In this document: positions 11,352 to 35,543 of the stretch, piece by piece
Layout: every line of letters starts with the position of its first letter
Numbering within the stretch: the first letter of the stretch is position 1
IMG/VR virus record: IMGVR_UViG_3300029448_000163
Location: 1-35,543 of that record
DNA from: a virus
Strand: one strand, 5' to 3'
Length of the DNA stretch: 35,543 nucleotides
The notes under the pieces: model-generated
The model's input: only the letters and a program-made list of their open reading frames with translations
Databases searched by the model: none
Told to the model about the DNA's origin: nothing
Translations under genes and position numbers: made by a program

Positions 11352-14192
11352 TTATAAAGCTCCCTCATTGGTATCTTTTTTAGGTACTTTAATAAATGAA
11401 TCTCTTCTCATAGGTTTACCTTTTTTTGTTTTTTTAATTTTATAATCACCAATCAATAATCCTTTATGTCCATTACCACTTGAATCGTCTACAGATTTTC
11501 CAAGTACCGAACCATTATTCAATTCTACAGTACAATGATTTCTAGCATAATAATCTGTTATGTCATCTATAAATATCGTATCGGCAATATTTCTACTGTA
11601 TTTTTTATTTAACTGAGAACCATCCCACCAAGTAAAATTATCATATGGGTGATTTATTAAAGGAGTTGGAAATCCATCATACAAAATACATTCATATACT
11701 AAATACTCTGTAATGTTACAAGCGTGATTTCCTTCATCATCAGCAGGATCAAGAACAATAGCTGTTGTACCTGGAAAATAATAATTACAAGCTTTTTGTG
11801 GAGTTATACAATTAGCGTTACCACATATAGTCATATCTGTTTGTAAATCCCACCAAGAACCATTATCATCTAAGCATAGATTATCTGGATAATCTCCGTC
11901 AGCCCATTCAGAGTTACCATACTTTTCAGCTGTTGCATTAAACTCCCCGTTTATACGAACTTGATTTATTAACTCATAATCAGGATCAAATTCTGGTTCA
12001 TACATATTTTCATTGTTGAAACCTAAATGATAGTGCATATCAAACACACCACGATTAAAAAATCTAACTTGTTCTAAATCTATTTTTTCAACATTTTTTC
12101 CTAACTCATCATTTTTTTCTGCCTCAAAAAGAAAATATTCATCAATTATTTCGTTTTCACCAATTTTACCACCTTGTAAAGTATTTTCCACACTTCTTAA
12201 ATATTTTGAGTGGCTACTAAGTCCCCCAACAACAGGTACAGTATATGGCCAAGGAATAGTTACATAATCATTTCCACCTAACTCACCAAAATCAGGATAA
12301 GAATTTTTAGGAATATCTAAAAAATGTCTAACTGTTACAAGTTTCCACCGTATTGGTTCAGCATTATAAGGTCTTTGAGAATTTATTTCATAGTTAAACA
12401 TTAAAAGTCTTATTGTTTTTATACCAGGAGTAGTATAACTATGTCTCAATGATTTCCTACCAACAATTCCAGCTTTATATAAATTATCATCTTGTTTTTT
12501 TACAAGTTGTTCAAAATCTAATGGATAATCATCCAACACTTTTTCCCATTCTTCAAATTCATTTTCAAAGTCATCCCATGTGATTACAAAATAAGCATAA
12601 CCAATGTTCAAACCTTCAGGTAACATAAGAGTTCTATCAACAATCTCTTCACCATCTGTGAAAGTCTGTTTAGCTTCTCCAACCGAAATGTCTAATTCAA
12701 TTGTAGTTGGTGATGAAGATTTAATTCTATTTTTTTCATCCTCGTAATAAGCTTGTAATTCGTGTTGGTCATCAATCAATGTTACAGTTGACAATGGAGT
12801 CCAATCACTAAACAAACTTGTTGATTCAGTAATTCCCAGTCTTGAAGTAAAAAATATTTCATTTGTTGGTGATAATTTTAAAAATCTTTCATCCAAATTT
12901 TCTAAATCTACACGAGGTTGAGGTTGTGTTACTTGTTCTAAAAAATTCTGATAATCAGCATTTACATTAACATCATCGTAACCAAATGTATTTATTGTAA
13001 CTTTCAAACTTGTAATTGTTTGAGCTACAGCATATTGTCCTGTCTCATCCATAATTAAAGAATCATTTTCACCAAATTCAAATGCTGTTTCTTTTCCAAA
13101 AATATCACCCTCATCAGTATAATAAAATAAATCACTTTGATTTATTTTGTAAGTTTGTATTCTATCATTTCTTGAAAAATCATTACCACCACCAGGTTTA
13201 GATGCATCACCTTTATGTTCAATAGAAATCCAAATTGGATTATATTGTCCATCTTGTTGAAAACAAGCTGAAATTGCATTTTCAGTTCTTGTAGAAGCAG
13301 GTAATCCACCACCCTTACCACCACCTTGATGAAAATCTGGTATAATTCCAATTCCTCCTGGAGATTGACCTGTAGGTGGCGGGTCATCACTATCTTCTTC
13401 ATCAGGTGGGGGAATAATATTAAAAGCACCGATGTAATAATCTACATCACTCCAACTTACATTTGGGTGATTTACAAAAGCATCATATTTTGTCGTTAAA
13501 AAAGTTCCACCCTCAGATAATAAACCCGCATCATTGTATATAGGATAGTCTCCTGTAGGGTTACCATCTTCATTAAATTGAACCGCATTTAGATTTGTCA
13601 TCAAAACATATCCTTCAAGTTCACTTACAGGACCAGGATCAGATGTTTGGCCAACACTACTGATATATTTATTCATAACTGTAGCACCCTCACCAGCATC
13701 TTGTCTAGCAGAAGTTCCAGACCTCCACAAATCATTTCTATATTCACTCCAACTTTTTAAAGTTCCATCTTCATTATATGGATTTCTATATGGAGTTTCA
13801 TCTTCAGCAGTATTATCTGGATTTACTTGGTTTACTGGCGTTCCATAGTTACTAAATATATACATTCTAATTCTTCTATCTTTTATTCCATATTGAATAC
13901 CAGGTCTTCTAGCTAATACCAACTCATCAATTCTAAAGAAAGTATCCGAAGAATACTTTAAATAATCTTGGGCAGAACCATCAGGATACTCTATCATAGA
14001 ATCTACAATAGCTTTGTTTACAGGATGGTCTTCATGAGCTGTATATAAATCTTTATCTATAAACTTATCCCAGTATTGTGGAACACTATCAGATAATTCG
14101 TGATCTAAATTATTATTATTTGATAAAAACAAATATCTTCCGTATAAATTATAACCAGGTTTATTTTTAAATATTCTTTTTTTATTAGCCAC
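11352..14192 (-). CDS. Large adhesin-like structural protein with module shared with the 2457-residue neighbour
   Basis: 946 residues. The N-terminus is basic (MANKKRIFKNKPGYNLYGRY). A Pro/Asp/Gly-rich hinge at about 259-300 splits the protein. The C-terminal half carries a PKD-like segment (about 538-630), then VPVVGGLSSHSKYLRSV (about 652-669), VRFFNRGVFDM (about 706-716), a Cys-bearing segment, and VDDSSGNGHKGLLIGDY (about 900-916). All of these have counterparts in the same order in the gene at 14192-21565. The start is GTG: its G is the last base of the upstream TAG stop, with GGAG 7 bases before it. The end encodes GAL through GGAGCTTTA, which serves as ribosome site for the next gene. 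Probably a fibre or spike; no enzyme motif seen. Confidence 0.75.
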   Translation of the reverse strand: MANKKRIFKNKPGYNLYGRYLFLSNNNNLDHELSDSVPQYWDKFIDKDLYTAHEDHPVNKAIVDSMIEYPDGSAQDYLKYSSDTFFRIDELVLARRPGIQYGIKDRRIRMYIFSNYGTPVNQVNPDNTAEDETPYRNPYNEDGTLKSWSEYRNDLWRSGTSARQDAGEGATVMNKYISSVGQTSDPGPVSELEGYVLMTNLNAVQFNEDGNPTGDYPIYNDAGLLSEGGTFLTTKYDAFVNHPNVSWSDVDYYIGAFNIIPPPDEEDSDDPPPTGQSPGGIGIIPDFHQGGGKGGGLPASTRTENAISACFQQDGQYNPIWISIEHKGDASKPGGGNDFSRNDRIQTYKINQSDLFYYTDEGDIFGKETAFEFGENDSLIMDETGQYAVAQTITSLKVTINTFGYDDVNVNADYQNFLEQVTQPQPRVDLENLDERFLKLSPTNEIFFTSRLGITESTSLFSDWTPLSTVTLIDDQHELQAYYEDEKNRIKSSSPTTIELDISVGEAKQTFTDGEEIVDRTLMLPEGLNIGYAYFVITWDDFENEFEEWEKVLDDYPLDFEQLVKKQDDNLYKAGIVGRKSLRHSYTTPGIKTIRLLMFNYEINSQRPYNAEPIRWKLVTVRHFLDIPKNSYPDFGELGGNDYVTIPWPYTVPVVGGLSSHSKYLRSVENTLQGGKIGENEIIDEYFLFEAEKNDELGKNVEKIDLEQVRFFNRGVFDMHYHLGFNNENMYEPEFDPDYELINQVRINGEFNATAEKYGNSEWADGDYPDNLCLDDNGSWWDLQTDMTICGNANCITPQKACNYYFPGTTAIVLDPADDEGNHACNITEYLVYECILYDGFPTPLINHPYDNFTWWDGSQLNKKYSRNIADTIFIDDITDYYARNHCTVELNNGSVLGKSVDDSSGNGHKGLLIGDYKIKKTKKGKPMRRDSFIKVPKKDTNEGAL

Positions 14193-17100
14193 TAAAATGC
14201 TCCATTTTTTGTAGATTTTTTCATTCTACTTAAATTTTTAGTTTTTTCAATTTTAAGTGTTTCATTATCAAATAATGGTCTAAAATCATTAATAGGAAAA
14301 CCTTTATTATTATTACCACTTTTATCATCGAGTACATTAGTATCAATTTCTTCACTGTTAATTGAAATTTTTAAAGCAGAATCGTGGTATTTATCGTCTG
14401 TTATTGGCCCCTCAAGAGGTAATGGTATATTTTCATATGGATATTCAGGAGGGTCTGTAAAGCTACCACCTTGATTAAATTTAGGTAATACAGGATAATA
14501 ATACCTATATCCTAATTCTGGATGAAATCCATCCCATCCTTGTTCTGAAAGTGGGTCAACATTTACAGATGTTGGATTTCTATAATATGAGCTCGATTTT
14601 AAACCCAATCCATCATTTGTTAGTTCTTGTTTTTCTTGAGATGTTAAATCAACCCAATTGGGTGGCATCTCAACAGCACCAATAAGTATATCAGAAATGT
14701 GTATAGATATATCTTCTCTACCCAGTATATTCCAATATGAAAGATCAAGTTGATTAATTTGTTTATCTTTAATTTCTTGACCTAATTCAGAACTAATATC
14801 AAATTCTTCAAAGTAAGTTGGAAATGGTAAAGTGCTTAAATAACCATCACTGGTATCTCTATAATATTTTAATCCTTCTCTACCTTGATGAGTTGTAAAC
14901 TCTGATTGAATTATATCAAAATCTTTAGGAATAATATTTTTCCAATATCTTGGTGAACCAGGATTTCCAGGATGAAGTAATGACCTCATATTTCCTTGTC
15001 TATTAACATCATCACCTCCAAGTAAATCATCAATACACATACCATTAACACAAGTTCCCCCCTCAAAACATATTCCTAATAAAGCACTGAAAACCACACC
15101 TTCAAGCCATTTACAAGTTCCTGGAGGAGGGCCATCAGTGAATACTTCCACATAACACGATTCGTCACAAAAAGAGGAACAAGCAGCTGAAGCTCCATCA
15201 CCATATACATCGTCACAAAAAGGCGTTTCTGGATCTGGACATACATAACAAACAACAGTTCCATGTTCGTCACAACCTGTGGTTACATTTTGTAACTGAT
15301 CATTACGTTGTAGGCATGTTTCATATGAAGTACCACCAACACACATATTAGGAAAACTTTGATATGGTGATTCTTTACAAGGACAATCGTTTGGATAACC
15401 CTTTTCATCTACATCCTCAGGATCACATTCACCACCAACATTCTCACCACCTTGACACATCTCACCTACACAAGATCTGTTACCACATTCAGCACATTCT
15501 TCTGAATATGGGTCGTTATTTTCACCATATTCTCCATTCTCACAAACTGCGTTCCAAGACGGATTACCATAAAATACACAACCCGAACATATACCAGCAC
15601 CATCCTCATCTTGATTTGTGAAATCACAAGTATATTGGTGTTGAATACAATCAGGTTGCTGATAATGATTATATTCAGAACAGTGTTCATCAGAATAACA
15701 AGGCATTTTTACAAATGTATCCCCACATGATACGGTACAAACATTATCTATACAATAACTATTAAATCTAAAAAATAACTCCTGGTCAAAATAATCAACT
15801 ATTTCATCACCATATTGTTTACATTCAGCAGTATGATAACATGTACCACCCGCTAAAACTTCACCAAATGGATAATAATTCATATCAGTTCCACCTGATG
15901 GAGATGGACAACCTAAATATGGTATGGTTAGAGTATCACCCGTATCCATTTCATATTCACGACCATCATAATAATTTTCTGGATTTAAAGAGTAACTATT
16001 AGCTAATACAATGGTTAAAACATCACCCTCATAAATTTGAAATTCTTGTGTAGCATATGGAGAAGCATCATACCACCACTCATCTATAGAATCCCACTCG
16101 GCAGCTGGTGAATTTACAAATATTCTCTCACCATTTAGTCTTACATCCATTTTTTCACCTGGACCTATCAATCTTGTAAGAAGAGTATTAGTGTCAACTG
16201 TAATTGGTGGACCAGGAATATCTGATTGCCAAATTATAACTCCTTCATATTGTGAAGTACAATGGCCATCCCCACAATCAACACCCATCCCAGTATTCAT
16301 AACTGCATCAATTTGTTCACTCATACCTAAAGTCCAATTCCAAACCCACATATCTTCAGTAAGTACAGAAGCAGTTATAGCTTCAAACTCTAATTCATTA
16401 TTTTCAGGATAAATACATGGTAAACTCCCCTCATAGTTACAAGCTTGATCATCTAAACAAGTAGTTACTATTGGGTCGTCTGATTCAGCATAATCTTCAG
16501 GTAAAGCACCTTCTCCAATTCCATCACCACCTGCAGTCCAATTATCAATTGGTTCTTCGTAATTTGGGTCTATGAATGTTTCATATTCTGTACTATTGTG
16601 TGGAACAAACATTTCCCATAGTTCTCTTGGTTTATTAAAATATCTTATGTTTGTTATGTCAACATCACCAATTGTACTACCAAGTTCATCAGGAAATGTA
16701 TTACTTATACCACTAAAAACTAAATCTCCATTACCATCAGGTTCAGTATATCTCTCTTGTTCAAAAGTAGGTAAAACTTGGAAAAAATCTTTGTTGCTAG
16801 AATCCATTTTATTTAAAGCTAGTTCTGTTTTTAATCTATCACCAATATATTTAAATGATGTTTGGATTTGTTCGTCTTCTAATATACCTAAATTTCTTTT
16901 AATTGATTTATAATAAATACTATTTTTTGAATATCCTCCTACAATAGGATATGTGTTTTCATAAGGAATAAATGAAAATCCTTCTGAACCAAAATATGTA
17001 AAGTCTTCTTCACGACCAGTACTAACATTTATTGTAAGAGTGAATCTTCTATTATGAACTACACCAATTGGTGTATTGTCTTTATCATATTTAAGTCTTA

Positions 17101-20100
17101 TCATATATCCTGTAATATCGTATATACCACCCTCTTCGAAAGTATGATATATCATTTCGTTATCACCCAATTGTAGTGGTTCATTGGTAAATTCTTTTGG
17201 ACTACCATCACCCCAATCAACATCAAATAAATAAAACATACCTTTTCTAAAATCGTTAAATACAGGATGAGTTTTACCAAATACATCTTCTTTAAAATAT
17301 CTTGGATAAAAATAAAATTGAGCTTCTAATGGAGCTACAGTATCTAAGTAAGCTTCCAATTGTTCAGGTATTGTTGGGTCATAATATTTTGTTAAATCAC
17401 CTTTACCATACCTAGCTGTTGCTAATTTTTGTCTGACATCAACATCAGGAACAAATTCATATGATTCTTTAACTTCAAAATTATCTAAATAAACAGTCCC
17501 TCTAAACTCATTTCCTGCTTGTACAAAAAATGACATATCTCTAACATTTTCAAAAGAATCTATATAATTCTGAGTAATATTAAAAGTAAATTCTTTCTTT
17601 TCCCAAACATTTAGTGCATCGTTTTTAAATCTATGCATACAACCAAATAAATCAAATGTCTCAGTTGTATTAGCATCTTCCCAATTACCAAATGAATTAT
17701 AGTAACCTTGAGCATCCCAATAATTATCATTATGAATAATTATATTTTCTGTTGGTTGTTGTTGGACATGACTTGAACAAAAATAACGCTCTTCAATTGG
17801 TTTATCAAGTCTCCACATATCATAAGTACAATATGGGTAGTTGCCTTCGGGACACATACGGTTATTTCCATGCCACTCAGTATCAGGATTGTATATGGAA
17901 TGATACCAATGTATGTCTGGTTCACCATCTTCATTAAAATCTTGATTATAAGAACTATTATTAAATTCAGGATCATAACAACTTGGTGTATCTTCCCAAT
18001 GAAATTGGAACATAGGTACACTTATACATTTTCCAGCTTCACCAATATTACCTTGATCGTCTTTAGCTGAATAAATTGGCATGCCATATTCCTGATAATC
18101 ATCATATTGTTGAAAAGATGGAGTATAACTTGGTGGAGATATTATTCCAGAACAAGACAATTTATAATGGGATTGGTTTCCACCATCACCAATTCCACAA
18201 TTATCAAAATAATTTACAGGATTACCCTGATCAGTTAATCCACTATTTTCAGGTAAAAGTTCTGTTGCTAGTCTCCAATAATAACATGGGGGACGATCAC
18301 ACTGTGCATGATCATCAGGTAGTATATCCGGAACAAACGCAAAACCACAATCGTCCCAATATCCACCTCCACCTCCAAAGTCGTAAGTTATAGATCCCAA
18401 ATAGTCATCATGGAATCCTAAATTACTAGCTTTCATAACACCAGATTCCACTTCAGGTGGATTTACCGATTCATATAAATCATCACTCATTGTTTTCATA
18501 TAAAAACTAACATTTAAAGAAGTAAATGGATTTAATAAACCAGCATTTATATTCCTATCAAATATTTTTTGTGATTGGTTTATTGTTCTATATTGATTTT
18601 CGTTTCTAAGCTCTAATACTCTATATGTATTTTTTACTGATATATCTTGGTCAGGTTCTAAATTATTAGCATTAGTTAATAAGTCTTCTATGTTATCCCA
18701 TTTACTATCAGCTTGAAATTTTAAACACTTGTTATAAGAGAGACATTCACTATTACCTCTAACCCACCTTGCCCATTGGAAATCATGTTCTATTGAAGCT
18801 ATTTCTTCACCAACATAACCATCACCCGTTGGGTCACCATCACCACTATATAGAGATATACCAGAGTTATTCCATTCATAGTTAACATTTGGATAAGCAT
18901 ATAAGAAAGCACCACCATAAGCAGGAAAATCATCAGATGGTTCATAGGTTGGTGATTGTATAAATCTCGCTAGTCTTTCGTCTGTTGGGTCGTTACCAAA
19001 ACCAGTATCAAGCCTCTCAACAGTTCCATTATAAGCTATGTGTTCCCAACTATCTGGATAATAAATGTTTTTGGTTGATTCACCATCAAGCCAAGTATCC
19101 CATTTTAGTTCATGTATAGCTCCTGATTCTCCGATACCCGTAGAATTTCTAACTAAATTATTTATTGGAAGTTGTGTAAATGTATCATCAACAATAGATG
19201 ATTGAAATTTATCTGATAATTTATTATCGTTTACAGTAGAAAATAGTCCAAGTGATGGTCTTTCATCGGCATCAGAAGCATAAAATAAATCAGAGTTATT
19301 AGTTGTATAAGTTTTACAAGCTTCTTCCCCATTACGATATATAAAATTACTTTGTGATAAATCACCTCTACAAGTAACTGAAGTAATCCAAACAAAATCA
19401 GCCGAATTACCACCACCACCAGCATCATTAGACTCCCACGGCATTACAATCCAACCCCAATCATCACCATAAGGAAGATTTGGAGTATCCCAATAAACCA
19501 TAATTCTATCAATATTGGGTTCAGTAATAGTTACTATATTGTCTAAACATTTATAATATTTTAAATTATCATCTTCCCCTACAAATTCTGCTTTATAATC
19601 AGTTGGTAAATATGACATATCCCACCAAGCTGGCCACATTTTATAATCATCATTATAGTGGTAATCAGATTCATTATAACCTGGATTACTATGTCGAGAA
19701 CAATCAGCACCAACTGGTGTAAGACCATATACGCTAGCACAACATTCTCGTGAACTTGCGGCACCAGCATCGTGTCTCATGTCATCAATATTAGCATAAT
19801 TATTACAATTGTCAGTTCCATCAAATAGTCCCCGTTGTTGATTACACCAGTCTTCCCATGAATATTCACCAATTACAACTTCAGTATCAGGGTCAGCATC
19901 TTCAAAGTATAAATCAGGATAAGGCCCATAACACCTATCATCACTCTGCCTTATACCTATATAGCCACCCTCTTCGTCACCAATATGTCTACCATAATTT
20001 GGAGAATATTCTGCATTTGTTGTGTAGGCAATATACCCATCATTATAACCTTGTTTAAGACAATATTGAGTTAGTGTATCATCAACTATATTTTCAACAT

Positions 20101-21565
20101 CCCAAAAACCAATGTTGTATTCTTGTGAATAGTAATCTAAATCCATCCAATCAAAACCAGGATTTTCCTGTTGTTGTTGAAATATAGCATTATTTTGTTC
20201 TATCGTAAGGTGTTGAATATCAGAGCCAGGTAAAGTTGGATTTAAAAATTCTGTCTCTGTTGTTTCACCAATGTAGTCTGGTGGTGTTAATAAAGGAACT
20301 CCACCACCCTGTGTTGAAGCTACTGTAACATAACTACCATCTTTACAAACTGCTCTCAACTCATCAAAGTTATATAGTGGAATTTCAAATTCTGTATTAC
20401 AGTCTGCTGTTTGTAAAACATCATATATTTCTTCAGTACCATAAAAAGGAGTTTGGTTTACATCATAATAAAAACCATCACCAGATAACTCATCTACTTC
20501 ATATTCTTGTTGCATCGGTGGATTTACCTCTGTAGGATAAAGTTTTTCTGCACCCAAATAAAATAATTCTGTAAATGATTCGTCACAAGGTAAATCACCA
20601 TAAAAAGCTCTTGAGGTTGGAGTTTGGTAAGCTATGTCTATTTTATATTTAGTTCCAGCCTCTAACGAATCATTTTTTTGAACATGCCTTACTAAAATTT
20701 TATAAAGATTAGCGTCTCCATCAAATTCAGATAAGTCTACATGGAAAGGAACTCTTGATGGGTCACCCTCATAACTTCCATTTTCTAAATTAGTAGTGTA
20801 GTCCCCATATGAAAACCCAACCCCATCAGCTGATATATCTGGTCCTTCTGCTGCTAATCTTAGTTCTCCACCAATTCCATCATTTATAAATAAACCAAAT
20901 GAATCATTAAAGTGAACACAAAATCTATATATTCCTGTCTCTTCCATTGTAATGTAAGACCTCATCTCAGCTAGATTATAGTTGGGGTCTTCATTTCCAG
21001 AGAATGGACTTGTATTTCCCGCAAAGTCAAAATTAAAACTTGAAATTTGTTGATTACTATAGGGTGAAGCGGTTATTGTTGCACCACTACCATCATCATA
21101 TCCCCAAACATTTGGTTTCCATACATCAGGCCAACCTGAACCAGGACTTGGATGTTGAAATGGTTCTGTTACTTTAGTAGCACCACCATGAGTTTCACCA
21201 TTGTCCAATCCCTCTTGATACCATGGCAAAACATTTGCATTTGTAAGACTTTCTTCATCAGCATTACCATCTACATCTCCACCAAGATACCTAACATTAA
21301 CAGCCCCATTATTGAAGCAATGACCTAAACCACCAGTTCCACCATATGATTCTGGCCCAGTAGAAGCAAAAGGGTCTTGACAATAAACATCATCGACAAT
21401 ACTTTGGTTTGGTAATAACATTATTTCGAGGTGACTACAAGCTTGTCTGTAGTCTTCTAATAAATTAATTCCACTAAAAGGATCATAAGGATCAGACAGT
21501 GTCTGTTCAATGGTAACACCAAATATTCCATAGTCTTCATTTTGTTCTGGCCAATCAAACGCCAT
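14192..21565 (-). CDS. 2457-residue adhesin (PA14-like, CBM-like, PKD, cysteine-rich domains)
   Basis: The largest gene in the window. A PA14-like beta-sandwich lies at about 150-325 (key strand YITMEETGIYRFCVHF, then LFINDG). A CBM4/9-like fold seems split: LNVSFYMKTMS near 1015 and the closing TVYLDNFEVKESYEF near 1365, with roughly 300 residues inserted. A PKD domain sits at about 1440-1515 (VDWGDGSP, later HTFEEGGIYDITG). Then come YPIVGGYSKNS, ITNIRYFN (about 1635), an ACNYEGSLPC motif (about 1705), a segment at about 1900-2180 with some 33 cysteines, and LDDKSGNNNKGFPINDF (about 2411-2427). The last features recur in the 946-residue neighbour. These folds bind sugars or proteins on cell surfaces, so a receptor-binding role is likely. 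Cysteine pairing would need oxidation outside the cytoplasm. AAGG lies 9 bases before the ATG. Confidence 0.78.
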   Translation of the reverse strand: MAFDWPEQNEDYGIFGVTIEQTLSDPYDPFSGINLLEDYRQACSHLEIMLLPNQSIVDDVYCQDPFASTGPESYGGTGGLGHCFNNGAVNVRYLGGDVDGNADEESLTNANVLPWYQEGLDNGETHGGATKVTEPFQHPSPGSGWPDVWKPNVWGYDDGSGATITASPYSNQQISSFNFDFAGNTSPFSGNEDPNYNLAEMRSYITMEETGIYRFCVHFNDSFGLFINDGIGGELRLAAEGPDISADGVGFSYGDYTTNLENGSYEGDPSRVPFHVDLSEFDGDANLYKILVRHVQKNDSLEAGTKYKIDIAYQTPTSRAFYGDLPCDESFTELFYLGAEKLYPTEVNPPMQQEYEVDELSGDGFYYDVNQTPFYGTEEIYDVLQTADCNTEFEIPLYNFDELRAVCKDGSYVTVASTQGGGVPLLTPPDYIGETTETEFLNPTLPGSDIQHLTIEQNNAIFQQQQENPGFDWMDLDYYSQEYNIGFWDVENIVDDTLTQYCLKQGYNDGYIAYTTNAEYSPNYGRHIGDEEGGYIGIRQSDDRCYGPYPDLYFEDADPDTEVVIGEYSWEDWCNQQRGLFDGTDNCNNYANIDDMRHDAGAASSRECCASVYGLTPVGADCSRHSNPGYNESDYHYNDDYKMWPAWWDMSYLPTDYKAEFVGEDDNLKYYKCLDNIVTITEPNIDRIMVYWDTPNLPYGDDWGWIVMPWESNDAGGGGNSADFVWITSVTCRGDLSQSNFIYRNGEEACKTYTTNNSDLFYASDADERPSLGLFSTVNDNKLSDKFQSSIVDDTFTQLPINNLVRNSTGIGESGAIHELKWDTWLDGESTKNIYYPDSWEHIAYNGTVERLDTGFGNDPTDERLARFIQSPTYEPSDDFPAYGGAFLYAYPNVNYEWNNSGISLYSGDGDPTGDGYVGEEIASIEHDFQWARWVRGNSECLSYNKCLKFQADSKWDNIEDLLTNANNLEPDQDISVKNTYRVLELRNENQYRTINQSQKIFDRNINAGLLNPFTSLNVSFYMKTMSDDLYESVNPPEVESGVMKASNLGFHDDYLGSITYDFGGGGGYWDDCGFAFVPDILPDDHAQCDRPPCYYWRLATELLPENSGLTDQGNPVNYFDNCGIGDGGNQSHYKLSCSGIISPPSYTPSFQQYDDYQEYGMPIYSAKDDQGNIGEAGKCISVPMFQFHWEDTPSCYDPEFNNSSYNQDFNEDGEPDIHWYHSIYNPDTEWHGNNRMCPEGNYPYCTYDMWRLDKPIEERYFCSSHVQQQPTENIIIHNDNYWDAQGYYNSFGNWEDANTTETFDLFGCMHRFKNDALNVWEKKEFTFNITQNYIDSFENVRDMSFFVQAGNEFRGTVYLDNFEVKESYEFVPDVDVRQKLATARYGKGDLTKYYDPTIPEQLEAYLDTVAPLEAQFYFYPRYFKEDVFGKTHPVFNDFRKGMFYLFDVDWGDGSPKEFTNEPLQLGDNEMIYHTFEEGGIYDITGYMIRLKYDKDNTPIGVVHNRRFTLTINVSTGREEDFTYFGSEGFSFIPYENTYPIVGGYSKNSIYYKSIKRNLGILEDEQIQTSFKYIGDRLKTELALNKMDSSNKDFFQVLPTFEQERYTEPDGNGDLVFSGISNTFPDELGSTIGDVDITNIRYFNKPRELWEMFVPHNSTEYETFIDPNYEEPIDNWTAGGDGIGEGALPEDYAESDDPIVTTCLDDQACNYEGSLPCIYPENNELEFEAITASVLTEDMWVWNWTLGMSEQIDAVMNTGMGVDCGDGHCTSQYEGVIIWQSDIPGPPITVDTNTLLTRLIGPGEKMDVRLNGERIFVNSPAAEWDSIDEWWYDASPYATQEFQIYEGDVLTIVLANSYSLNPENYYDGREYEMDTGDTLTIPYLGCPSPSGGTDMNYYPFGEVLAGGTCYHTAECKQYGDEIVDYFDQELFFRFNSYCIDNVCTVSCGDTFVKMPCYSDEHCSEYNHYQQPDCIQHQYTCDFTNQDEDGAGICSGCVFYGNPSWNAVCENGEYGENNDPYSEECAECGNRSCVGEMCQGGENVGGECDPEDVDEKGYPNDCPCKESPYQSFPNMCVGGTSYETCLQRNDQLQNVTTGCDEHGTVVCYVCPDPETPFCDDVYGDGASAACSSFCDESCYVEVFTDGPPPGTCKWLEGVVFSALLGICFEGGTCVNGMCIDDLLGGDDVNRQGNMRSLLHPGNPGSPRYWKNIIPKDFDIIQSEFTTHQGREGLKYYRDTSDGYLSTLPFPTYFEEFDISSELGQEIKDKQINQLDLSYWNILGREDISIHISDILIGAVEMPPNWVDLTSQEKQELTNDGLGLKSSSYYRNPTSVNVDPLSEQGWDGFHPELGYRYYYPVLPKFNQGGSFTDPPEYPYENIPLPLEGPITDDKYHDSALKISINSEEIDTNVLDDKSGNNNKGFPINDFRPLFDNETLKIEKTKNLSRMKKSTKNGAF

Positions 21566-29876: not shown

Positions 29877-30617
29877 TTAAAAAAATGAACCAGATGAATC
29901 AATCATAATAGTCCCATTTTTATGATATTTATTAACAAGTTTTTTATAATGTTTTTTTAATACATTTACAACTGATGTTATGTGAGCTGTTTCTACATCC
30001 GTCATTTCTCTAATTAATATGTATAGAGCTTTTTTATTAAAGTTTTCTATCTCTTCTCGTGCTTTTATTAAATCAACGATAGCATATCCTATTTTTAAAT
30101 CCCTATCTTTTTTAAAAATAGTGTTTAGATTTTTATCAAAATATTCAACGATTTCGGTAGTAAAAGAACCATAATCATAATCCATATCTTTAAGGTTTTT
30201 TTCTCTATCTAATACATCCATACCATCGTGACTTTTTAATTTTTTATAATTGTTATTGTTATGTAAAATCAAATAGTTTTTAGCCACTACTGAAAAGTAA
30301 CTAAATGCTTTTGAACCTTTTGTATGGTCATATTTGTGAATATTCATTACCATAAATGCCACCACTTCGTGTTTGACATCTTCAAAAGGCATATCAAAAT
30401 AAGTAAACTTAAATGTATTAATTATATTTTCAGCTAATTTATCAAAAGCTGCGTGTATTCTTGTTCCATAAATTAAATTTCTTTCATTGTCATTAGTTGA
30501 TGAGTTATATTCAACAACTGCGTTTTGAACCTCTTGTCCAAAATAAACTTTTCGTTTTTTCTTTTTAACTATTTTTTTAATCTCTGCTTTTACATCATTG
30601 ACTTTCTTTTTTGGCAT
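29877..30617 (-). CDS. gp55: Late transcription sigma factor (T4 gp55-like)
   Basis: 246 residues from ATG 30617. I chose this start because GAGGAG lies 7 bases before it and the protein then begins MPKKKVNDVK; an in-frame ATG 33 bases further upstream lacks such a site. A Lys-rich N-terminus precedes the sigma region-2 core: two helices (IHAAFDKLAENIINTF and EDVKHEVVAFMVMNIHKYD), followed by HTKGSKAFSYFSVVAKNYL, matching the D-x-x-(K/R)-G-x-x-F-x-x-Y/W core that binds RNA polymerase and melts the -10 region. gp55-type factors direct host polymerase to late promoters. Region 4 is absent, as in gp55. The gene overlaps its upstream neighbour by 23 bases and is followed by a terminator. It may act on the shared 20-base element downstream. 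Confidence 0.82.
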   Translation of the reverse strand: MPKKKVNDVKAEIKKIVKKKKRKVYFGQEVQNAVVEYNSSTNDNERNLIYGTRIHAAFDKLAENIINTFKFTYFDMPFEDVKHEVVAFMVMNIHKYDHTKGSKAFSYFSVVAKNYLILHNNNNYKKLKSHDGMDVLDREKNLKDMDYDYGSFTTEIVEYFDKNLNTIFKKDRDLKIGYAIVDLIKAREEIENFNKKALYILIREMTDVETAHITSVVNVLKKHYKKLVNKYHKNGTIMIDSSGSFF

Positions 30618-30879
30618 CTTGTGTCTCCTCTGATTCGAATATACCATCAAGTGATAACTGAATCTGTTTTAGTTGTTCAAAGAAAAAACCTGTTTCATCA
30701 TCTGATTCATAATGACCTTTAGCATCGACAAGTTTCATTTTATCTGTTGCAAATTTAATTACTTGTTGAATCTGTAAAATAAATTCCTCATATTGTGTTA
30801 TTCTTCGTAATGAATAAAATAATAATGTAGATGAAGCTACACTAATTATGAAGAATAATATTGTTAATAACCACCACAT
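30595..30879 (-). CDS. Small N-terminally membrane-anchored protein
   Basis: 94 residues. Residues 3-22 form one hydrophobic segment (WLLTILFFIISVASSTLLFY) followed by basic residues (RR at 25-26), as in an N-in or signal-anchor protein; the rest is a charged amphipathic helix and acidic tail that would extend from the membrane. AGGAG is 6 bases before the ATG. It overlaps the sigma factor gene and follows the HD gene by 9 bases. Function unknown: possible roles include superinfection exclusion, a lysis accessory, or membrane tethering. Phage small membrane proteins are too diverse to choose. Confidence 0.68.
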   Translation of the reverse strand: MWWLLTILFFIISVASSTLLFYSLRRITQYEEFILQIQQVIKFATDKMKLVDAKGHYESDDETGFFFEQLKQIQLSLDGIFESEETQDAKKESQ

Positions 30880-30888
30880 ACATCTCTC

Positions 30889-31626
30889 CTAATTAAACAA
30901 TTCATCAAATTTATTTTTGAGATTGTCCACTTGTTTTTGTTCATCTTTTGTTTTTGGAACTTTTGTATTTATTGGCTCATCATTTGATTTATTCCACATA
31001 TCACCTTCTATATAAGTCGCCATCATATCTGCTTGGTGAAGTATATGTGCCATATTAGACTTTAAAGAGAAGTCTGGATTATAAGTCATTAAATAAGATT
31101 TATTAGCATCATCATATAAACCATCCGTTAATTTAATCCCAATGTATTCTTTGTCTGTAACTTTAACACTAAAATGTTGAAGTAACCATAAAGCTCTATC
31201 AGGCACTTTCATATATTGAAGAGATGGGTTATGTGAATAAATTTTACCTTGATTTTTTCTATGCCAATCTGATTCGTTTGGTATATAATAATCGTTATCT
31301 AAATCTCCAACTTTACCAAAGTCGTGGTGCATAGCTGCAAAAACTAACTCCTCGTCTGTGAAGTTTATATCGGCTCCATTTTTTTCCCATAATTGTTTTA
31401 CTTCAAGTGAGTGATTTATCACATGAAGAATATGTTCAACATATCCACCAGGCATAGGATTATGAAAATGTTCTCTTCCACTAGCTGGTGCAAACATTAT
31501 TCTTTCTTTAAAGTAATCGTACATCTTTAAAAGATTTTCTCGTCTATCATCACCGATATGTGAATCAATAATCTCTATTAATGTATTCCAATTTATTTGT
31601 ATTTGTTCTGCTGATAATTTTCTCAT
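30889..31626 (-). CDS. HD-domain phosphohydrolase
   Basis: 245 residues. The HD metal-site residues are visible: H65 in GGYVEHILHV, H101-D102 in AAMHHDFGKVGD, H151 in WLLQHFSV, and D200 in HILHQADMMATYIE. The APASGREHFHNPMPGGYVEH approach resembles the start of HD nucleases/phosphohydrolases such as YhaM-type enzymes. The family removes phosphates from nucleotides or cleaves phosphodiesters; the substrate here is not deducible. In a phage it could adjust nucleotide pools or remove a host alarm or second-messenger nucleotide. Its ATG overlaps the stop of the glycosyltransferase (TAATG), with GGAG 8 bases upstream inside that gene's last codons. The C-terminus after 210 is Lys/Glu-rich and helical. 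Confidence 0.82.
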   Translation of the reverse strand: MRKLSAEQIQINWNTLIEIIDSHIGDDRRENLLKMYDYFKERIMFAPASGREHFHNPMPGGYVEHILHVINHSLEVKQLWEKNGADINFTDEELVFAAMHHDFGKVGDLDNDYYIPNESDWHRKNQGKIYSHNPSLQYMKVPDRALWLLQHFSVKVTDKEYIGIKLTDGLYDDANKSYLMTYNPDFSLKSNMAHILHQADMMATYIEGDMWNKSNDEPINTKVPKTKDEQKQVDNLKNKFDELFN

Positions 31627-32963
31627 TATTTTACTCCATAACCATATTTGGTAAATTTAACTTTTGTTTCGTTTCTTAATTTATTTCTATAAGCATCGAA
31701 TGGTATTCTTACTCCCCAATTTAAATATGCTTTTAATTCTCTTTTAGTTACATAACCTTTTTTAATAATATAGCTTACTATTTTTTTGTAAGATTCTGTT
31801 TTTTCTTTTATTTGTTTTAATTTTTTTTCTGCTAATAAAAAATGTTCATTGTATTTTTTTATAGTTATATCCCAAGTATTTTCTTTAGCTGTTTCTTTTG
31901 ATTTTTTAGAATATTTTTTTCTGTAATTTTCATCGTCAAGTATTTTATTTATCTTAACCATAAACTCATTATCGTCAGTAAAATATATTCCACTATCCTT
32001 TATTGTTTCAGAATAATAATTTTCATTTAAAAATATATAAGGTGTTCCAACACTCATACCATCTGCTGCTGAATTAACCCAACCTTTGTGATATGATTTT
32101 CCACATACACCAACCCAACATTTTGATAACTCAGTAAAGTAACCTTGTCTATTAAACTTATCTATAGATATATATTCTCTATCTTGAGTATCTGCTAAAG
32201 GCACCCATACTTTAAAATCTTGTCTTTGTTTCCAAAGTTTATCCATTTGTTTTAAAAACCAGGGGTAACTCTTATATGTATTTGGTCTATGATTAAATAC
32301 AATTATTTTTTTATCTGTTGATGGTTGTTTCCGTTCACCATCTACATTATCCCAACCCCTATATAATGGTTTGATTATTTTTTTCATTTTACTAACTTGT
32401 TCTTTATTTAAAAAATTAGAAGCATGATTTATAATTTCATCTTTTAAAGCTTGAGAATTTACACCACAACTATTCATTTCTAAAATACCATTGAAGTTAG
32501 CTCTTAACATACTCATATCATATTTAGCAGTCGCTGGTATTTCTATGTAACCACAATACCCAAAAAATATTGGTTTACAATTGGTTACATTATAAAATAA
32601 ATTTTTAAGTCGTAGTGTATGTTCAGGAAGATATGTATAAACAAAATCCCAATCTTTATTTTTCCAATCAATTATTTCCAACAATCTTTTCGTATCAAAG
32701 TGACACCTCATTGTGTTAGGATAACTTGGTTGATTGTAAATAACTTGTTCAGTATTTTTATATTGGAAACCTGGCATAATTTCAGGAGTCAATACTGTAA
32801 AGTGAATATCGGGTCTTAATTTTGTTAGGTGTTCTAACACCCTTGACATTATAATGTAATAACTATCTTTGGTAAAATCTTTCTGATAAGTTATATTTGG
32901 ATATACTAAACATCTATATTTATATTCTACCAGACTATCTGCATCTTCCATAAATTTATTCAT
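31626..32963 (-). CDS. GT-B glycosyltransferase with basic C-terminal extension
   Basis: 445 residues. The N-terminal Rossmann-like half has YKYRCLVYPNITYQKDF and a DWDFVYTYLPEHTLRL strand-helix. The second half has IIVFNHRPNTYKSYPWFLKQ (about 225-245), FKVWVPLADTQ, and the nucleotide-sugar site region CWVGVCGKSYHKGWVNSAAD then GMSVGTPYIFLNENYY (about 280-318), as in GT1/GT4-like enzymes. The last 55 residues are very basic, with KKGYVTKRELKAYLNWGVRI shaped like a helix-turn-helix. That tail raises the possibility that the acceptor is DNA, as with phage base glucosyltransferases, but protein or glycan acceptors are also possible. The ATG overlaps the DUF262 gene by 8 bases with GGAGG 12 bases upstream. 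The donor sugar is unknown. Confidence 0.75.
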   Translation of the reverse strand: MNKFMEDADSLVEYKYRCLVYPNITYQKDFTKDSYYIIMSRVLEHLTKLRPDIHFTVLTPEIMPGFQYKNTEQVIYNQPSYPNTMRCHFDTKRLLEIIDWKNKDWDFVYTYLPEHTLRLKNLFYNVTNCKPIFFGYCGYIEIPATAKYDMSMLRANFNGILEMNSCGVNSQALKDEIINHASNFLNKEQVSKMKKIIKPLYRGWDNVDGERKQPSTDKKIIVFNHRPNTYKSYPWFLKQMDKLWKQRQDFKVWVPLADTQDREYISIDKFNRQGYFTELSKCWVGVCGKSYHKGWVNSAADGMSVGTPYIFLNENYYSETIKDSGIYFTDDNEFMVKINKILDDENYRKKYSKKSKETAKENTWDITIKKYNEHFLLAEKKLKQIKEKTESYKKIVSYIIKKGYVTKRELKAYLNWGVRIPFDAYRNKLRNETKVKFTKYGYGVK

Positions 32964-35208
32964 TATTAAGATAAACCTCCATCATATCTTTCCACATATC
33001 AAGTGTTTGTATACTCTTTTTCCATCCCAGTTTTTCTTTTACATTGGATGTAGTATTACTTTTAGTTTTCATCATATCTATTAAAGTATTACAAGCATCA
33101 ATGAATGTACCATCTGTTTCAGTATCTATAATATTTTTTTGTGGGTTATCAGAAATAAATTGATTAAATTCAGGACTTAGAGGAAACCAATATTTTAATT
33201 CCTTGTGTGGGTTATCACTACTTCTGAAATGTAAATGATGACTATGAAAATTATCTTTAGTAACAGGTTTACAACTATGTGGACATATATATAGATAATC
33301 ATCCGTATGTTCTAATACTTCTTCAAAGTATGTTTCAGCTTCAGACCTAGACCACAATGATTCATCCATAGATTGTATATATTCAGAAATAATAGTTTGA
33401 AAGTTTGATACTCCATAATTCTTAAATAAAAAGTTTCCTCTATTTTTTGTTCCTCGTTTTTGGCCAATCTTACTGACGTGACCATTTATTTTATCCTCTT
33501 GGGCTTTCACAATATCATCAAATGTATTTATCATACAATCTAATTTACCAATAATCCAATCTTCAAGTTTAAACTTTTTTAAATAACTGTGTAAAGATAA
33601 TGTTGAGAACACTACAAATTGGTCATGATATTTTACTTTGTGTAATTCTAAACAATCACTGTAGTATTTAAAATCTTTAAGTTCTTTTAACACATCTACA
33701 GGTGTTACATCTTCATTAGGATATTTATTTTTAATTTTTTTAATTTCATCAGTATGTGGTTTTTTTAATTTATCAAGACACTTAGCCCACCTAATTACTC
33801 GATTTAAAAAATCATCAGAAGTTGTCAATAGAGCTATCTTTAAAATATTTTCTACAAACTCAACAAAGATTTTTTTATCATCTATAACTAAATTAGAAAA
33901 TCTCTCAATCCAAAAGTCATACATTTTAGGTTTAATACCATATGTTGTCCAAGCACTATTGTCAAATGGTTCTCCACCCCACAATTCCGAATCCGTTGGA
34001 TTACACTTTACATCAAACTTATATATTAGTTTTTGTTCACCATCATCATTAGCAATCATTTCTCTCTTTACCCTTGACAATATCATTTGATAAACATAAA
34101 TTAAATATTGATCAAAATTCATTTGATTTTGTTCATCGGAAGAAGTATCATATGAAAACTTTTTGGTAATACCTGATGGGAAATCAACTTCTTTTCTATT
34201 AAAAAATGGAATGTGTGGAACTACATCTGATAAATAACCAACCAACGAATCAGATATAGTTAACTTACTACCAAATAATAATTCAGAAAACTCTGTTTCT
34301 GATAAGTCAGACTTTACTCTTTGTGTTGTTGAGTGACTTGAAACATGTTCATTTAGTTTCCTAAATAAAAGAGAAGCAGTTTTGGAATCACATAAATGAA
34401 GATTACCATAAACTATCATTTTTTCTTTATCTTCAAAAACACTTTTCATTTCAGGTTGGTGATTTATTAATTGTTCAAAGTTAAAAGATTCCCCATCAAA
34501 TGTGTTAACAAATTGGTCAAATGATTTCCAAACATCGGGCCATAAATTTTTATCAGTAAACAATGTCTCTTTTTCTTGAAGTGCTTTTTTGAGAGATTGT
34601 ACAGAAAATGATTTTCCAAAAAACATAAAATCTACAACTAACAATAATCTATGTTGACCATCATAAACATATATTTTTTGTTTATAATCTTTATCAGTTT
34701 TTACTACAAAGGTAACTTCTGGTTTTTTAGAACCTTTTAATATATCAAGTAATTGTTCTAATTGATATACCTCAGTTTGTCTTTCTGCTTTAGTTTGTTC
34801 TTTAGGCCTGACAAAGTAAAAATTATCGTCTTTTTCAGAAACTACAAAATTAGGATTATCAAAGTTTTTAAAACAATCTTTTATTGAACTATCTGTTAAA
34901 TCGATATGCATTCTATACTCACCAGCCTCATTGTTACAAGCGAATTGTTTCAATGAATTTCTAATTCTAGCGTTTAATTCTTTTCTTGATAATTTTTTAA
35001 ATTCAATAAGTTCATTTGATTTAAAAGTTTCTTTTATCATAATCTTTTCTATTTCTCTTCTTTGTTTATGATTTAAACGGGGAACTTGTTTTACTTCCAT
35101 AGCCCCATTATCATCTATAAATTTTTCTACATTATTATTCATTATTACTCCATTATTTGTTTTAGCATTTAATATTTTATTTTTATATCTATCTGATGTT
35201 TTTATCAT
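32956..35208 (-). CDS. DUF262 (DGQHR) plus HNH-like nuclease, GmrSD-type architecture
   Basis: 750 residues. The DUF262 signature D183-G-Q-H-R187 lies in VYDGQHRLLLVVDFM, and the second DUF262 hallmark, LLFRKLNEHVSSHSTTQRVK (about 277-296), matches the F-x-x-(I/L)-N-x-x-x-x-(L/S) motif. Near the C-terminus a C642-x3-C646 pair, HSHHLHFR (655-662) and later N residues in FPLSPEFNQFISDN resemble a zinc-type HNH site preceded by the usual W-S-x-x-E-A-E helix. DUF262 plus a C-terminal HNH is the layout of GmrSD-type modification-dependent restriction enzymes, where the DGQ(Q/H)R domain binds nucleotide. The first ATG (35208) has AAGGAG 9 bases upstream. A second ATG at 35142 (728 residues) has GGAG 5 bases upstream and fits the promoter position better. 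The nuclease call is an inference. Confidence 0.7.
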   Translation of the reverse strand: MIKTSDRYKNKILNAKTNNGVIMNNNVEKFIDDNGAMEVKQVPRLNHKQRREIEKIMIKETFKSNELIEFKKLSRKELNARIRNSLKQFACNNEAGEYRMHIDLTDSSIKDCFKNFDNPNFVVSEKDDNFYFVRPKEQTKAERQTEVYQLEQLLDILKGSKKPEVTFVVKTDKDYKQKIYVYDGQHRLLLVVDFMFFGKSFSVQSLKKALQEKETLFTDKNLWPDVWKSFDQFVNTFDGESFNFEQLINHQPEMKSVFEDKEKMIVYGNLHLCDSKTASLLFRKLNEHVSSHSTTQRVKSDLSETEFSELLFGSKLTISDSLVGYLSDVVPHIPFFNRKEVDFPSGITKKFSYDTSSDEQNQMNFDQYLIYVYQMILSRVKREMIANDDGEQKLIYKFDVKCNPTDSELWGGEPFDNSAWTTYGIKPKMYDFWIERFSNLVIDDKKIFVEFVENILKIALLTTSDDFLNRVIRWAKCLDKLKKPHTDEIKKIKNKYPNEDVTPVDVLKELKDFKYYSDCLELHKVKYHDQFVVFSTLSLHSYLKKFKLEDWIIGKLDCMINTFDDIVKAQEDKINGHVSKIGQKRGTKNRGNFLFKNYGVSNFQTIISEYIQSMDESLWSRSEAETYFEEVLEHTDDYLYICPHSCKPVTKDNFHSHHLHFRSSDNPHKELKYWFPLSPEFNQFISDNPQKNIIDTETDGTFIDACNTLIDMMKTKSNTTSNVKEKLGWKKSIQTLDMWKDMMEVYLNNE

Positions 35209-35224
35209 TTATATTATCTCCTTT

Positions 35225-35254
35225 AATATACAACCTTTTAGCAATATAAGTCAA
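35225..35254 (-). promoter_or_regulatory. Sigma70-like promoter before the DUF262 gene
   Basis: Read on the minus strand: a run of about 11 A and AGC, -35 TTGACT (35249-35254), an 18-base spacer, and -10 TATATT (35225-35230). It resembles the promoter at 1691-1719 in the A-tract, AGCTTGAYTTAT and TATATT. The expected start point is near 35218, inside the ribosome site of the first ATG, which favours the second ATG at 35142 on this transcript. Confidence 0.55.
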
Positions 35255-35265
35255 GCTTTTTTTTT

Positions 35266-35543
35266 TTATCTACCAACTTCACCTAAATATTTTTCTTTAC
35301 ATTGTTCCCAAGTCATCCCCATTATATCTCCATAGAATAGTATTTCAGGTTTAATTCTATTGTCATTAAACAATGTTGTGTATCTTCTGATAGCTTTTGG
35401 TTTCCACCAAGAATTAATTCTATCATAATCCAAAACATATTTTTGTTTCATTACTAAATCTTTATCTTCAATTTCATTTCTTAAATAATTTAATCCATTC
35501 TCATACATATTAGCAAAGAACACACCTCGTTTAAATCCGTGTT
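35266..35543 (-). CDS. 3' end of an unidentified gene (partial)
   Basis: The reading frame is open to the right edge (the codons read HGFKRGVFFANMYENGLNYL and on), so the GTG at 35523 is unlikely to be the true start. The visible 90-odd residues are polar with several aromatics (INSWWKPKAIRRYTTLFNDN) and end KEKYLGEVGR followed by TAA. No signature I can name. A 57-base gap with a promoter separates it from the DUF262 gene, so it probably ends the previous unit, though no hairpin terminator is visible, only an A-tract. Confidence 0.7.
   Translation of the reverse strand, partial: HGFKRGVFFANMYENGLNYLRNEIEDKDLVMKQKYVLDYDRINSWWKPKAIRRYTTLFNDNRIKPEILFYGDIMGMTWEQCKEKYLGEVGR

What the first reader, a model, noticed from the sequence alone, without database searches (positions are those of the whole stretch)
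32956..35208. Phage-encoded DUF262-HNH protein with GmrSD-like architecture
The sequence shows DGQHR (183-187), the F-x-x-L-N motif, and a C-terminal Cys/His cluster that looks like HNH. In cellular genomes this layout belongs to modification-dependent restriction enzymes (GmrSD, BrxU) that attack phage DNA. Finding it as the first gene of a phage operon whose next gene is a glycosyltransferase suggests a modify-self/cut-others pair: it could degrade host or rival phage DNA while the phage's own DNA is protected. This pairing is inference.
Basis: partly seen in the sequence, partly recalled or inferred. Interest (0 to 1): 0.72.

Follow-up and report, generated by a model that had tools for sequence, protein, structure and literature searches.

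The report
Swappable phage DNA-cutting gene beside glycosyltransferase
A virus of bacteria carries a probable DNA-cutting enzyme resembling bacterial anti-phage restriction enzymes; in related viruses the same spot, always beside the same sugar-attaching enzyme, holds a series of different DNA cutters, as if the cutter were an exchangeable weapon and the sugar enzyme its constant partner.

Summary
The ORF is real (32956-35208, minus strand, 750 aa) and the quoted motifs are there. It has no Pfam, NCBIfam, PADLOC or PDB match. Only two full homologues were found, both directly upstream of the same glycosyltransferase (GT); DGQHR, F..LN and the Cys/His cluster are invariant in all three. Profile comparison links residues ~140-370 to GmrSD_N (DUF262/ParB fold) proteins, far above shuffled controls. 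The C-terminal HNH reading is motif-level only: it is not above shuffles, and the middle Asn position is Tyr. AlphaFold failed (pLDDT 40).
The main result lies outside the coordinates. In related T4-like viral contigs the slot upstream of this GT is hypervariable. About two thirds of non-redundant occupants are ParB/DUF262-type proteins, most with a recognisable nuclease domain of one of three kinds (HNH, GIY-YIG, PD-(D/E)XK); others are Mom, DNA methyltransferases or nothing. Contigs 95-97% identical on both flanks carry unrelated nucleases with exact junctions. Blind searches with two slot nucleases found most full-length relatives again beside this GT, also in other genome locations. A DruA-family gene is a third frequent partner.
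Best reading: phage-borne restriction-like nuclease with a constant modification shield. Rival: homing endonuclease hotspot. Self-modification is unproven; no hydroxymethylase was found.

The parts
32956..35208 (-). P0001, 750-aa DUF262/ParB-like protein with C-terminal HNH-like Cys/His cluster
   Evidence: full homologues only in L043 (=L017) and L060, 45-46% identity
34648..34662 (-). DGQHR motif, residues 183-187 (putative NTP-binding motif of the ParB/Srx fold)
   Evidence: sequence; invariant in 3 of 3; aligned to DGQQR of GmrSD_N proteins
34351..34365 (-). FRKLN, residues 282-286 (F-x-x-L-N motif)
   Evidence: sequence; invariant positions in 3 of 3; aligned to F..LN of DUF262 slot proteins
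33163..33285 (-). HNH-like segment, residues 642-682: C642, C646, H657, H658, N682; Tyr673 at the usual middle Asn
   Evidence: invariant in 3 of 3; same C-x15-H register as the HNH of L118 but score within shuffle range
31626..32963 (-). Partner glycosyltransferase, GT-B/GT4-like, with a C-terminal small helical/winged domain; constant partner of the slot
   Evidence: Pfam Glycos_transf_1 1.7e-6; AF2 pLDDT 80; Foldseek MshA/BshA E about 1e-13; 557 or more relatives in viral contigs
35225..35254 (-). Sigma70-like promoter TTGACT-18-TATATT in front of the slot gene
   Evidence: number of sites in the region is at chance; TTGACT lies 9-22 nt after the DruA stop in 7 of 38 distinct loci with unrelated slot genes, about 0.1 expected
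35266..35541 (-). 3' end of a DruA-family (DUF4338, GNAT-like) gene, conserved upstream neighbour
   Evidence: phrog_19197 1.1e-4; full-length homologue in L033 Pfam DruA 6.7e-23; DruA in 17 of 20 related records
30889..31626 (-). HD-domain phosphohydrolase-like gene, conserved downstream neighbour of the GT
   Evidence: phrog_28876 6e-12; HD 4.6e-4; present in most loci

Best explanation
P0001 is a divergent DUF262/ParB-fold protein, most likely an NTP-dependent DNA endonuclease working like the Type IV restriction enzymes GmrSD/BrxU. It is one allele of a swappable nuclease slot fixed directly upstream of a GT, and often downstream of a DruA-family gene, in T4-like phages. Proposed action: the N-terminal ParB-type domain senses DNA using NTP and the C-terminal HNH-like domain cuts competing phage or host DNA early in infection. 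The phage's own DNA is spared because the constant partners (GT, perhaps the DruA-family GNAT) modify it in a way that blocks any nuclease, which is why nucleases of unrelated catalytic types can be exchanged freely beside the same GT. Shown by computation: the DUF262-like domain, the slot, the swap, the linkage to the GT, and conservation of the motifs. Inferred: DNA cleavage, the target, GT acting on DNA, and self-protection.
For: DUF262 domain: hhalign A3 against A4 E=1.9e-4; N-terminal score 37.7 against shuffled 14.1 +/- 2.8, reversed 12.8; A4 members hit GmrSD_N up to 8.9e-12 and HNH 1.8e-10. Slot: of 61 non-redundant ORFs directly upstream of the GT, 21 belong to the DUF262-HNH cluster, 9 to ParB + PD-(D/E)XK, 7 to GIY-YIG + ParB, 3 to the P0001 family, 4 more by motif only, 5 are Mom and 3 DNA methyltransferases. 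Swap: L132 and L149 are 94.6% and 96.7% identical on the two sides, but one has DUF262-HNH and the other ParB-PD-(D/E)XK, with the junction 3 nt before the GT start codon. At 75-90% GT identity only 84 of 323 pairs share the slot family. Blind linkage: 12 of 22 DUF262-HNH hits and 7 of 11 ParB-PD-(D/E)XK hits lie directly upstream of this GT, also between RNase H and DNA polymerase genes. Modification context: DruA in 17 of 20 records; Mom and TAGT in or beside the slot.
Against: No dCMP/dUMP hydroxymethylase, thymidylate synthase or ThyX in 16 related records, so the base the GT would glycosylate is unknown; the records are fragments. GT fold neighbours are small-molecule and polysaccharide GT4 enzymes. 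The GT also occurs with an empty slot (gaps of 15-42 bp in L039, L065, L099). HNH of P0001 is not statistically supported and lacks the middle Asn. No usable fold model of P0001. The blind queries came from GT-linked loci, so part of the linkage is descent.
Confidence: 0.5

Rival explanations
1. The slot is a homing-endonuclease hotspot: the nucleases are selfish genes that cut slot-empty relatives near the DruA-GT junction and spread with flanking DNA, perhaps with a side benefit of excluding co-infecting phages.
For: Nuclease types in the slot (HNH, GIY-YIG) are classic homing types; L073 slot protein matches phrog_314 homing endonuclease 3.4e-7; empty sites exist; exact allele replacement with conserved flanks; precedent for a homing endonuclease acting in interference competition (PMC11620839).
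Against: The added domain is ParB/DUF262 of the restriction type; proteins are mostly 390-750 aa; the slot also takes Mom, methyltransferases and a GHKL ATPase; the nuclease+GT pair recurs in other genome locations.
Confidence: 0.25
2. P0001 is not a nuclease but a ParB/Srx-type NTPase acting in counter-defence or nucleotide/regulatory control, as proposed for DndB-like proteins; the C-terminal cluster is a zinc or structural domain.
For: HNH not above shuffles and middle Asn replaced by Tyr; DndB, a ParB-superfamily protein, has been claimed to be a regulator (PMC10853773).
Against: H657, H658 and N682 are invariant in a recognisable C-x15-H register; neighbouring alleles of the slot carry clear nuclease domains.
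Confidence: 0.15
3. Generic accessory-gene hotspot in phages: contents are unrelated in function and the GT neighbour is coincidental.
For: Slot also holds a TnpB-type transposase, and PhoH or ribonucleotide reductase genes are neighbours in some contigs.
Against: Strong excess of ParB/DUF262-type nucleases (at least 33 of 53 non-redundant in GT-seeded loci) and blind re-discovery of the GT beside them in different backbones.
Confidence: 0.1

Closest known systems
GmrSD / BrxU (Type IV restriction, DUF262 + DUF1524/HNH)
   Same: ParB/Srx-type DUF262 domain with DGQ[Q/H]R and F..N motifs; single chain with a long helical middle and a C-terminal Cys/His (HNH-like) region
   Different: Phage-borne; no Pfam hit of its own; C-terminal region is not DUF1524 and lacks the middle Asn; linked to a GT and a DruA-family gene and swapped with ParB + PD-(D/E)XK and GIY-YIG + ParB proteins
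DGQHR/DndB-like ParB-superfamily proteins
   Same: DGQHR pentapeptide and F..N motif
   Different: Added HNH-like C-terminus; genetic partner is a GT and not a Dnd operon
Free-standing phage homing endonucleases (T4 Seg/Mob type)
   Same: Intergenic, mobile, HNH or GIY-YIG nucleases, exact allele replacement in relatives
   Different: ParB/DUF262 fusion, larger size, linkage to DNA-modification-type genes
T4 alpha/beta-glucosyltransferases and TAGT enzymes
   Same: Phage GT next to a restriction-like nuclease; a TAGT gene occurs at related loci (L073, L101, L147)
   Different: This GT is GT4-like, nearest to MshA/BshA; no hydroxymethylase found; DNA as acceptor not shown

Membership tests
GmrSD (Type IV restriction) | DUF262/GmrSD_N domain with DGQQR-type motif and F..N | tested here: met
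   No direct Pfam hit, but profile-profile match to GmrSD_N proteins with both motifs aligned, far above shuffles
GmrSD (Type IV restriction) | DUF1524/GmrD with (E/D)H..., NL..., N (E/D-H-N-N) | tested here: not met
   No DUF1524 match; HH in place of (E/D)H and Tyr673 in place of the middle Asn
GmrSD (Type IV restriction) | NTP-stimulated cleavage of modified DNA | not testable with these tools
   Needs biochemistry
HNH endonuclease | Statistically recognisable HNH (beta-beta-alpha-Me) domain | tested here: inconclusive
   Score 15.3 against shuffled 11.6 +/- 2.0, maximum 16.7; no Pfam hit; model unusable
HNH endonuclease | Cys/His/Asn ligands conserved in homologues | tested here: met
   C642, C646, H657, H658, N682 invariant in 3 of 3
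Homing endonuclease | Occupied and empty alleles at one site with conserved flanks | tested here: met
   Empty slots L039, L065, L099; exact swap L132/L149
Homing endonuclease | Cuts the empty site and copies itself in | not testable with these tools
   Needs a coinfection or cleavage assay
Modify-self/cut-others pair with the GT | Physical linkage of nuclease and GT across independent backgrounds | tested here: met
   12 of 22 and 7 of 11 blind hits directly upstream of the GT
Modify-self/cut-others pair with the GT | Pathway for a glycosylated base | tested here: inconclusive
   PF00303 and PF02511 absent in 16 fragment records; PF12851 search had no working control; TAGT in 1 of 20

The most novel reading that the evidence does not exclude
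A phage-borne restriction-modification-like module in which a constant glycosyltransferase (with a DruA-family GNAT) shields the phage genome and an interchangeable ParB/DUF262-type nuclease, of at least three catalytic kinds, attacks unshielded rival or host DNA.
Probability: 0.4. Interest if true: 0.88.

Novelty: new variant of a known kind. Interest (0 to 1): 0.7.

Why it matters
If right, lytic phages carry a weapon and shield architecture normally known from bacterial defence, with the weapon exchanged as a cassette while the shield stays. That would make phage-phage competition and the role of phage DNA modifications directly testable, and would explain why DUF262/ParB nucleases and DruA-family genes sit in viral genomes. 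Even as a homing hotspot, a site taking ParB-nuclease fusions of three catalytic kinds would be unusual.

Tried and rejected
1) Direct family searches of P0001: nothing in Pfam, NCBIfam, PADLOC or PDB; PHROG hits weak and over short stretches only.
2) tblastn of P0001 and of the GT in named phages: no match. P0001 profile in GTDB genomes: none.
3) AlphaFold of P0001 on its 3-sequence alignment: pLDDT 40, so no fold search was run on it.
4) The promoter scan alone is at chance (50 found, 48 expected); only its recurrence across loci means anything.
5) TET/JBP search: no control rang, so uninformative.
6) Profile comparison of P0001 with the L037/L028 and L102 groups: no match.
8) 'GT specific to this gene' was rejected: the GT occurs with many different slot genes.

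Full report
OBSERVATION. The ORF at 32956-35208 (minus) is intact, 750 aa. DGQHR 183-187, FRKLN 282-286 and the C-terminal cluster C642-C646-H657-H658-N682 are present. No Pfam, NCBIfam, PADLOC or PDB family matches it; PHROG hits are weak and cover short stretches. Its stop overlaps the GT start by 8 bp. The window is an IMG/VR virus record of 35.5 kb from a T4-like myovirus (gp6- and gp25-like baseplate genes, primase, RuvC-like resolvase).

HOMOLOGUES. Direct searches in viral contigs, named phages and GTDB genomes found nothing at first. Going through the neighbouring GT gave full-length homologues in L043 (=L017) and L060, 45-46% identical, each directly upstream of the GT. A specific pattern scan found only these two. 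The motifs are invariant in all three.

DOMAINS. A profile of the three proteins aligns to eight DUF262-HNH proteins from the same slot with E=1.9e-4 (probability 47%), DGQHR on DGQQR and FRKLN on F..LN. For the N-terminal region the score is 37.7, against 14.1 +/- 2.8 (maximum 20.6) for 40 column shuffles and 12.8 reversed. Of the slot proteins, seven match Pfam GmrSD_N, best 8.9e-12. I therefore accept a DUF262/ParB-type domain. The C-terminal HNH gives 15.3 against 11.6 +/- 2.0 (maximum 16.7): the register C-x15-H is right (CPHSCKPVTKDNFHSHH on CDYTGEPLKFADAVGDH), but it is not significant, and the position of the middle Asn is Tyr673 in all three. HNH is likely but unproven. AlphaFold gave pLDDT 40 and was not used. 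GmrSD motifs and the ParB/Srx assignment are described in PMC4619093; broad modification-dependent cleavage by BrxU in PMC13390438.

THE SLOT. At least 557 viral stretches encode a relative of the GT; 80 loci were kept. The gap between the DruA-family gene and the GT is empty in some (15-42 bp; L039, L065, L099) and in others holds one or more genes that differ from phage to phage. In 61 non-redundant ORFs directly upstream of the GT, 40 fall in four families: DUF262-HNH (21), ParB + PD-(D/E)XK (9), GIY-YIG + ParB (7), P0001 (3). Four more (L029, L115, L104, L106) resemble these by motif only. Restricted to GT-seeded loci the count is 33 of 53. Some members are fragments at contig ends. Others are Mom (5), DNA methyltransferases (3), an HNH-helicase and a GHKL ATPase. 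The GIY-YIG and PD-(D/E)XK readings rest on a PHROG homing-endonuclease hit (3.4e-7), a weak Pfam GIY-YIG hit (0.03), a ParB PHROG hit (9e-4), and the conserved D...EIK motif in alignment A10.

SWAPPING. L132 and L149 are 94.6% identical over 3.9 kb upstream and 96.7% over 2.7 kb downstream, yet carry unrelated slot genes (DUF262-HNH against ParB-PD-(D/E)XK). The downstream junction lies 3 nt before the GT start codon. Over all pairs with GT identity of 75-90%, only 84 of 323 have the same slot family; even at 99% GT identity a swap is seen (L103/L104). The window's nearest GT relatives L028 (83%), L029 (80%) and L045 (71%) all have different slot genes. The window, L029 and L045 share the promoter and the first residues (MIKTS[DN][RK]YK[NQ]K) before diverging, so exchange can occur just inside the ORF.

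LINKAGE. Searching with slot nucleases, without using the GT, 12 of 22 DUF262-HNH hits and 7 of 11 ParB-PD-(D/E)XK hits lie directly upstream of the GT, and three more have it about 0.9 kb away. Several are in other genome locations, such as between the RNase H and DNA polymerase genes (L127, L132, L149) or after DNA polymerase and DruA (L128). DUF262-HNH hits without the GT also exist (L126, L133-L136, L138-L142), the last four matching only the N-terminal part. DruA is in 17 of 20 related records; DUF4338 is described as a GNAT domain in PMC10853773.

MECHANISM. Shown: divergent DUF262-type protein; swappable nuclease slot; constant GT; frequent DruA neighbour. Inferred: NTP-dependent DNA cleavage, rival or host DNA as target, GT acting on DNA. 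A constant GT with nucleases of different catalytic types is easiest to explain if the modification blocks all of them. Against this, no hydroxymethylase, thymidylate synthase or ThyX was found in 16 fragments, and the GT resembles small-molecule GT4 enzymes. A homing hotspot remains the main rival (25%); precedent for homing nucleases in interference competition is PMC11620839.

NOVELTY. In the open literature searched I found no description of this slot or of the GT/DruA/nuclease association; the search was limited to open papers. I file it as a new variant of a known kind (DUF262/ParB nucleases), not as a GmrSD member, because the GmrD half was tested and not met.

Noticed in passing
window 31626-32963, C-terminal about 55 aa: The GT ends in a conserved small helical/winged-like segment (TKrdi...LnWGvRisFsgYRNrLRnE) that could bind DNA; conserved in most GT relatives.
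   Followed up: partly
window 35266-35541 and homologues: A DruA-family (Druantia/DUF4338) gene is a near-constant member of these phages, although DruA is known from bacterial defence.
   Followed up: partly
L033:7384-7995, L054, L058, L063, L087, L127: Mom-family genes, sometimes two in tandem, sit in the same slot or just beside it.
   Followed up: partly
L146:3097-3963, L073:5187-5990, L101:3-752: TET-associated glycosyltransferase (TAGT)-like genes at the same locus, a hint of DNA glycosylation.
   Followed up: partly
L037:7482-8595: The DruA-family gene is split by an apparent frameshift in this contig.
   Followed up: no
window 14192-21565 and 5407-11349: Giant ORFs of 2457 and 1980 aa with no family match, one with a Cys-rich stretch; probably tail fibre or adhesin genes.
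   Followed up: no
window 29877-30650: Conserved gene after the HD gene looks by eye like a T4 gp55-type late sigma factor; no family hit.
   Followed up: no
L092:4175-5374: A TnpB/OrfB-type IS605 gene on the opposite strand lies in the slot of this contig.
   Followed up: no
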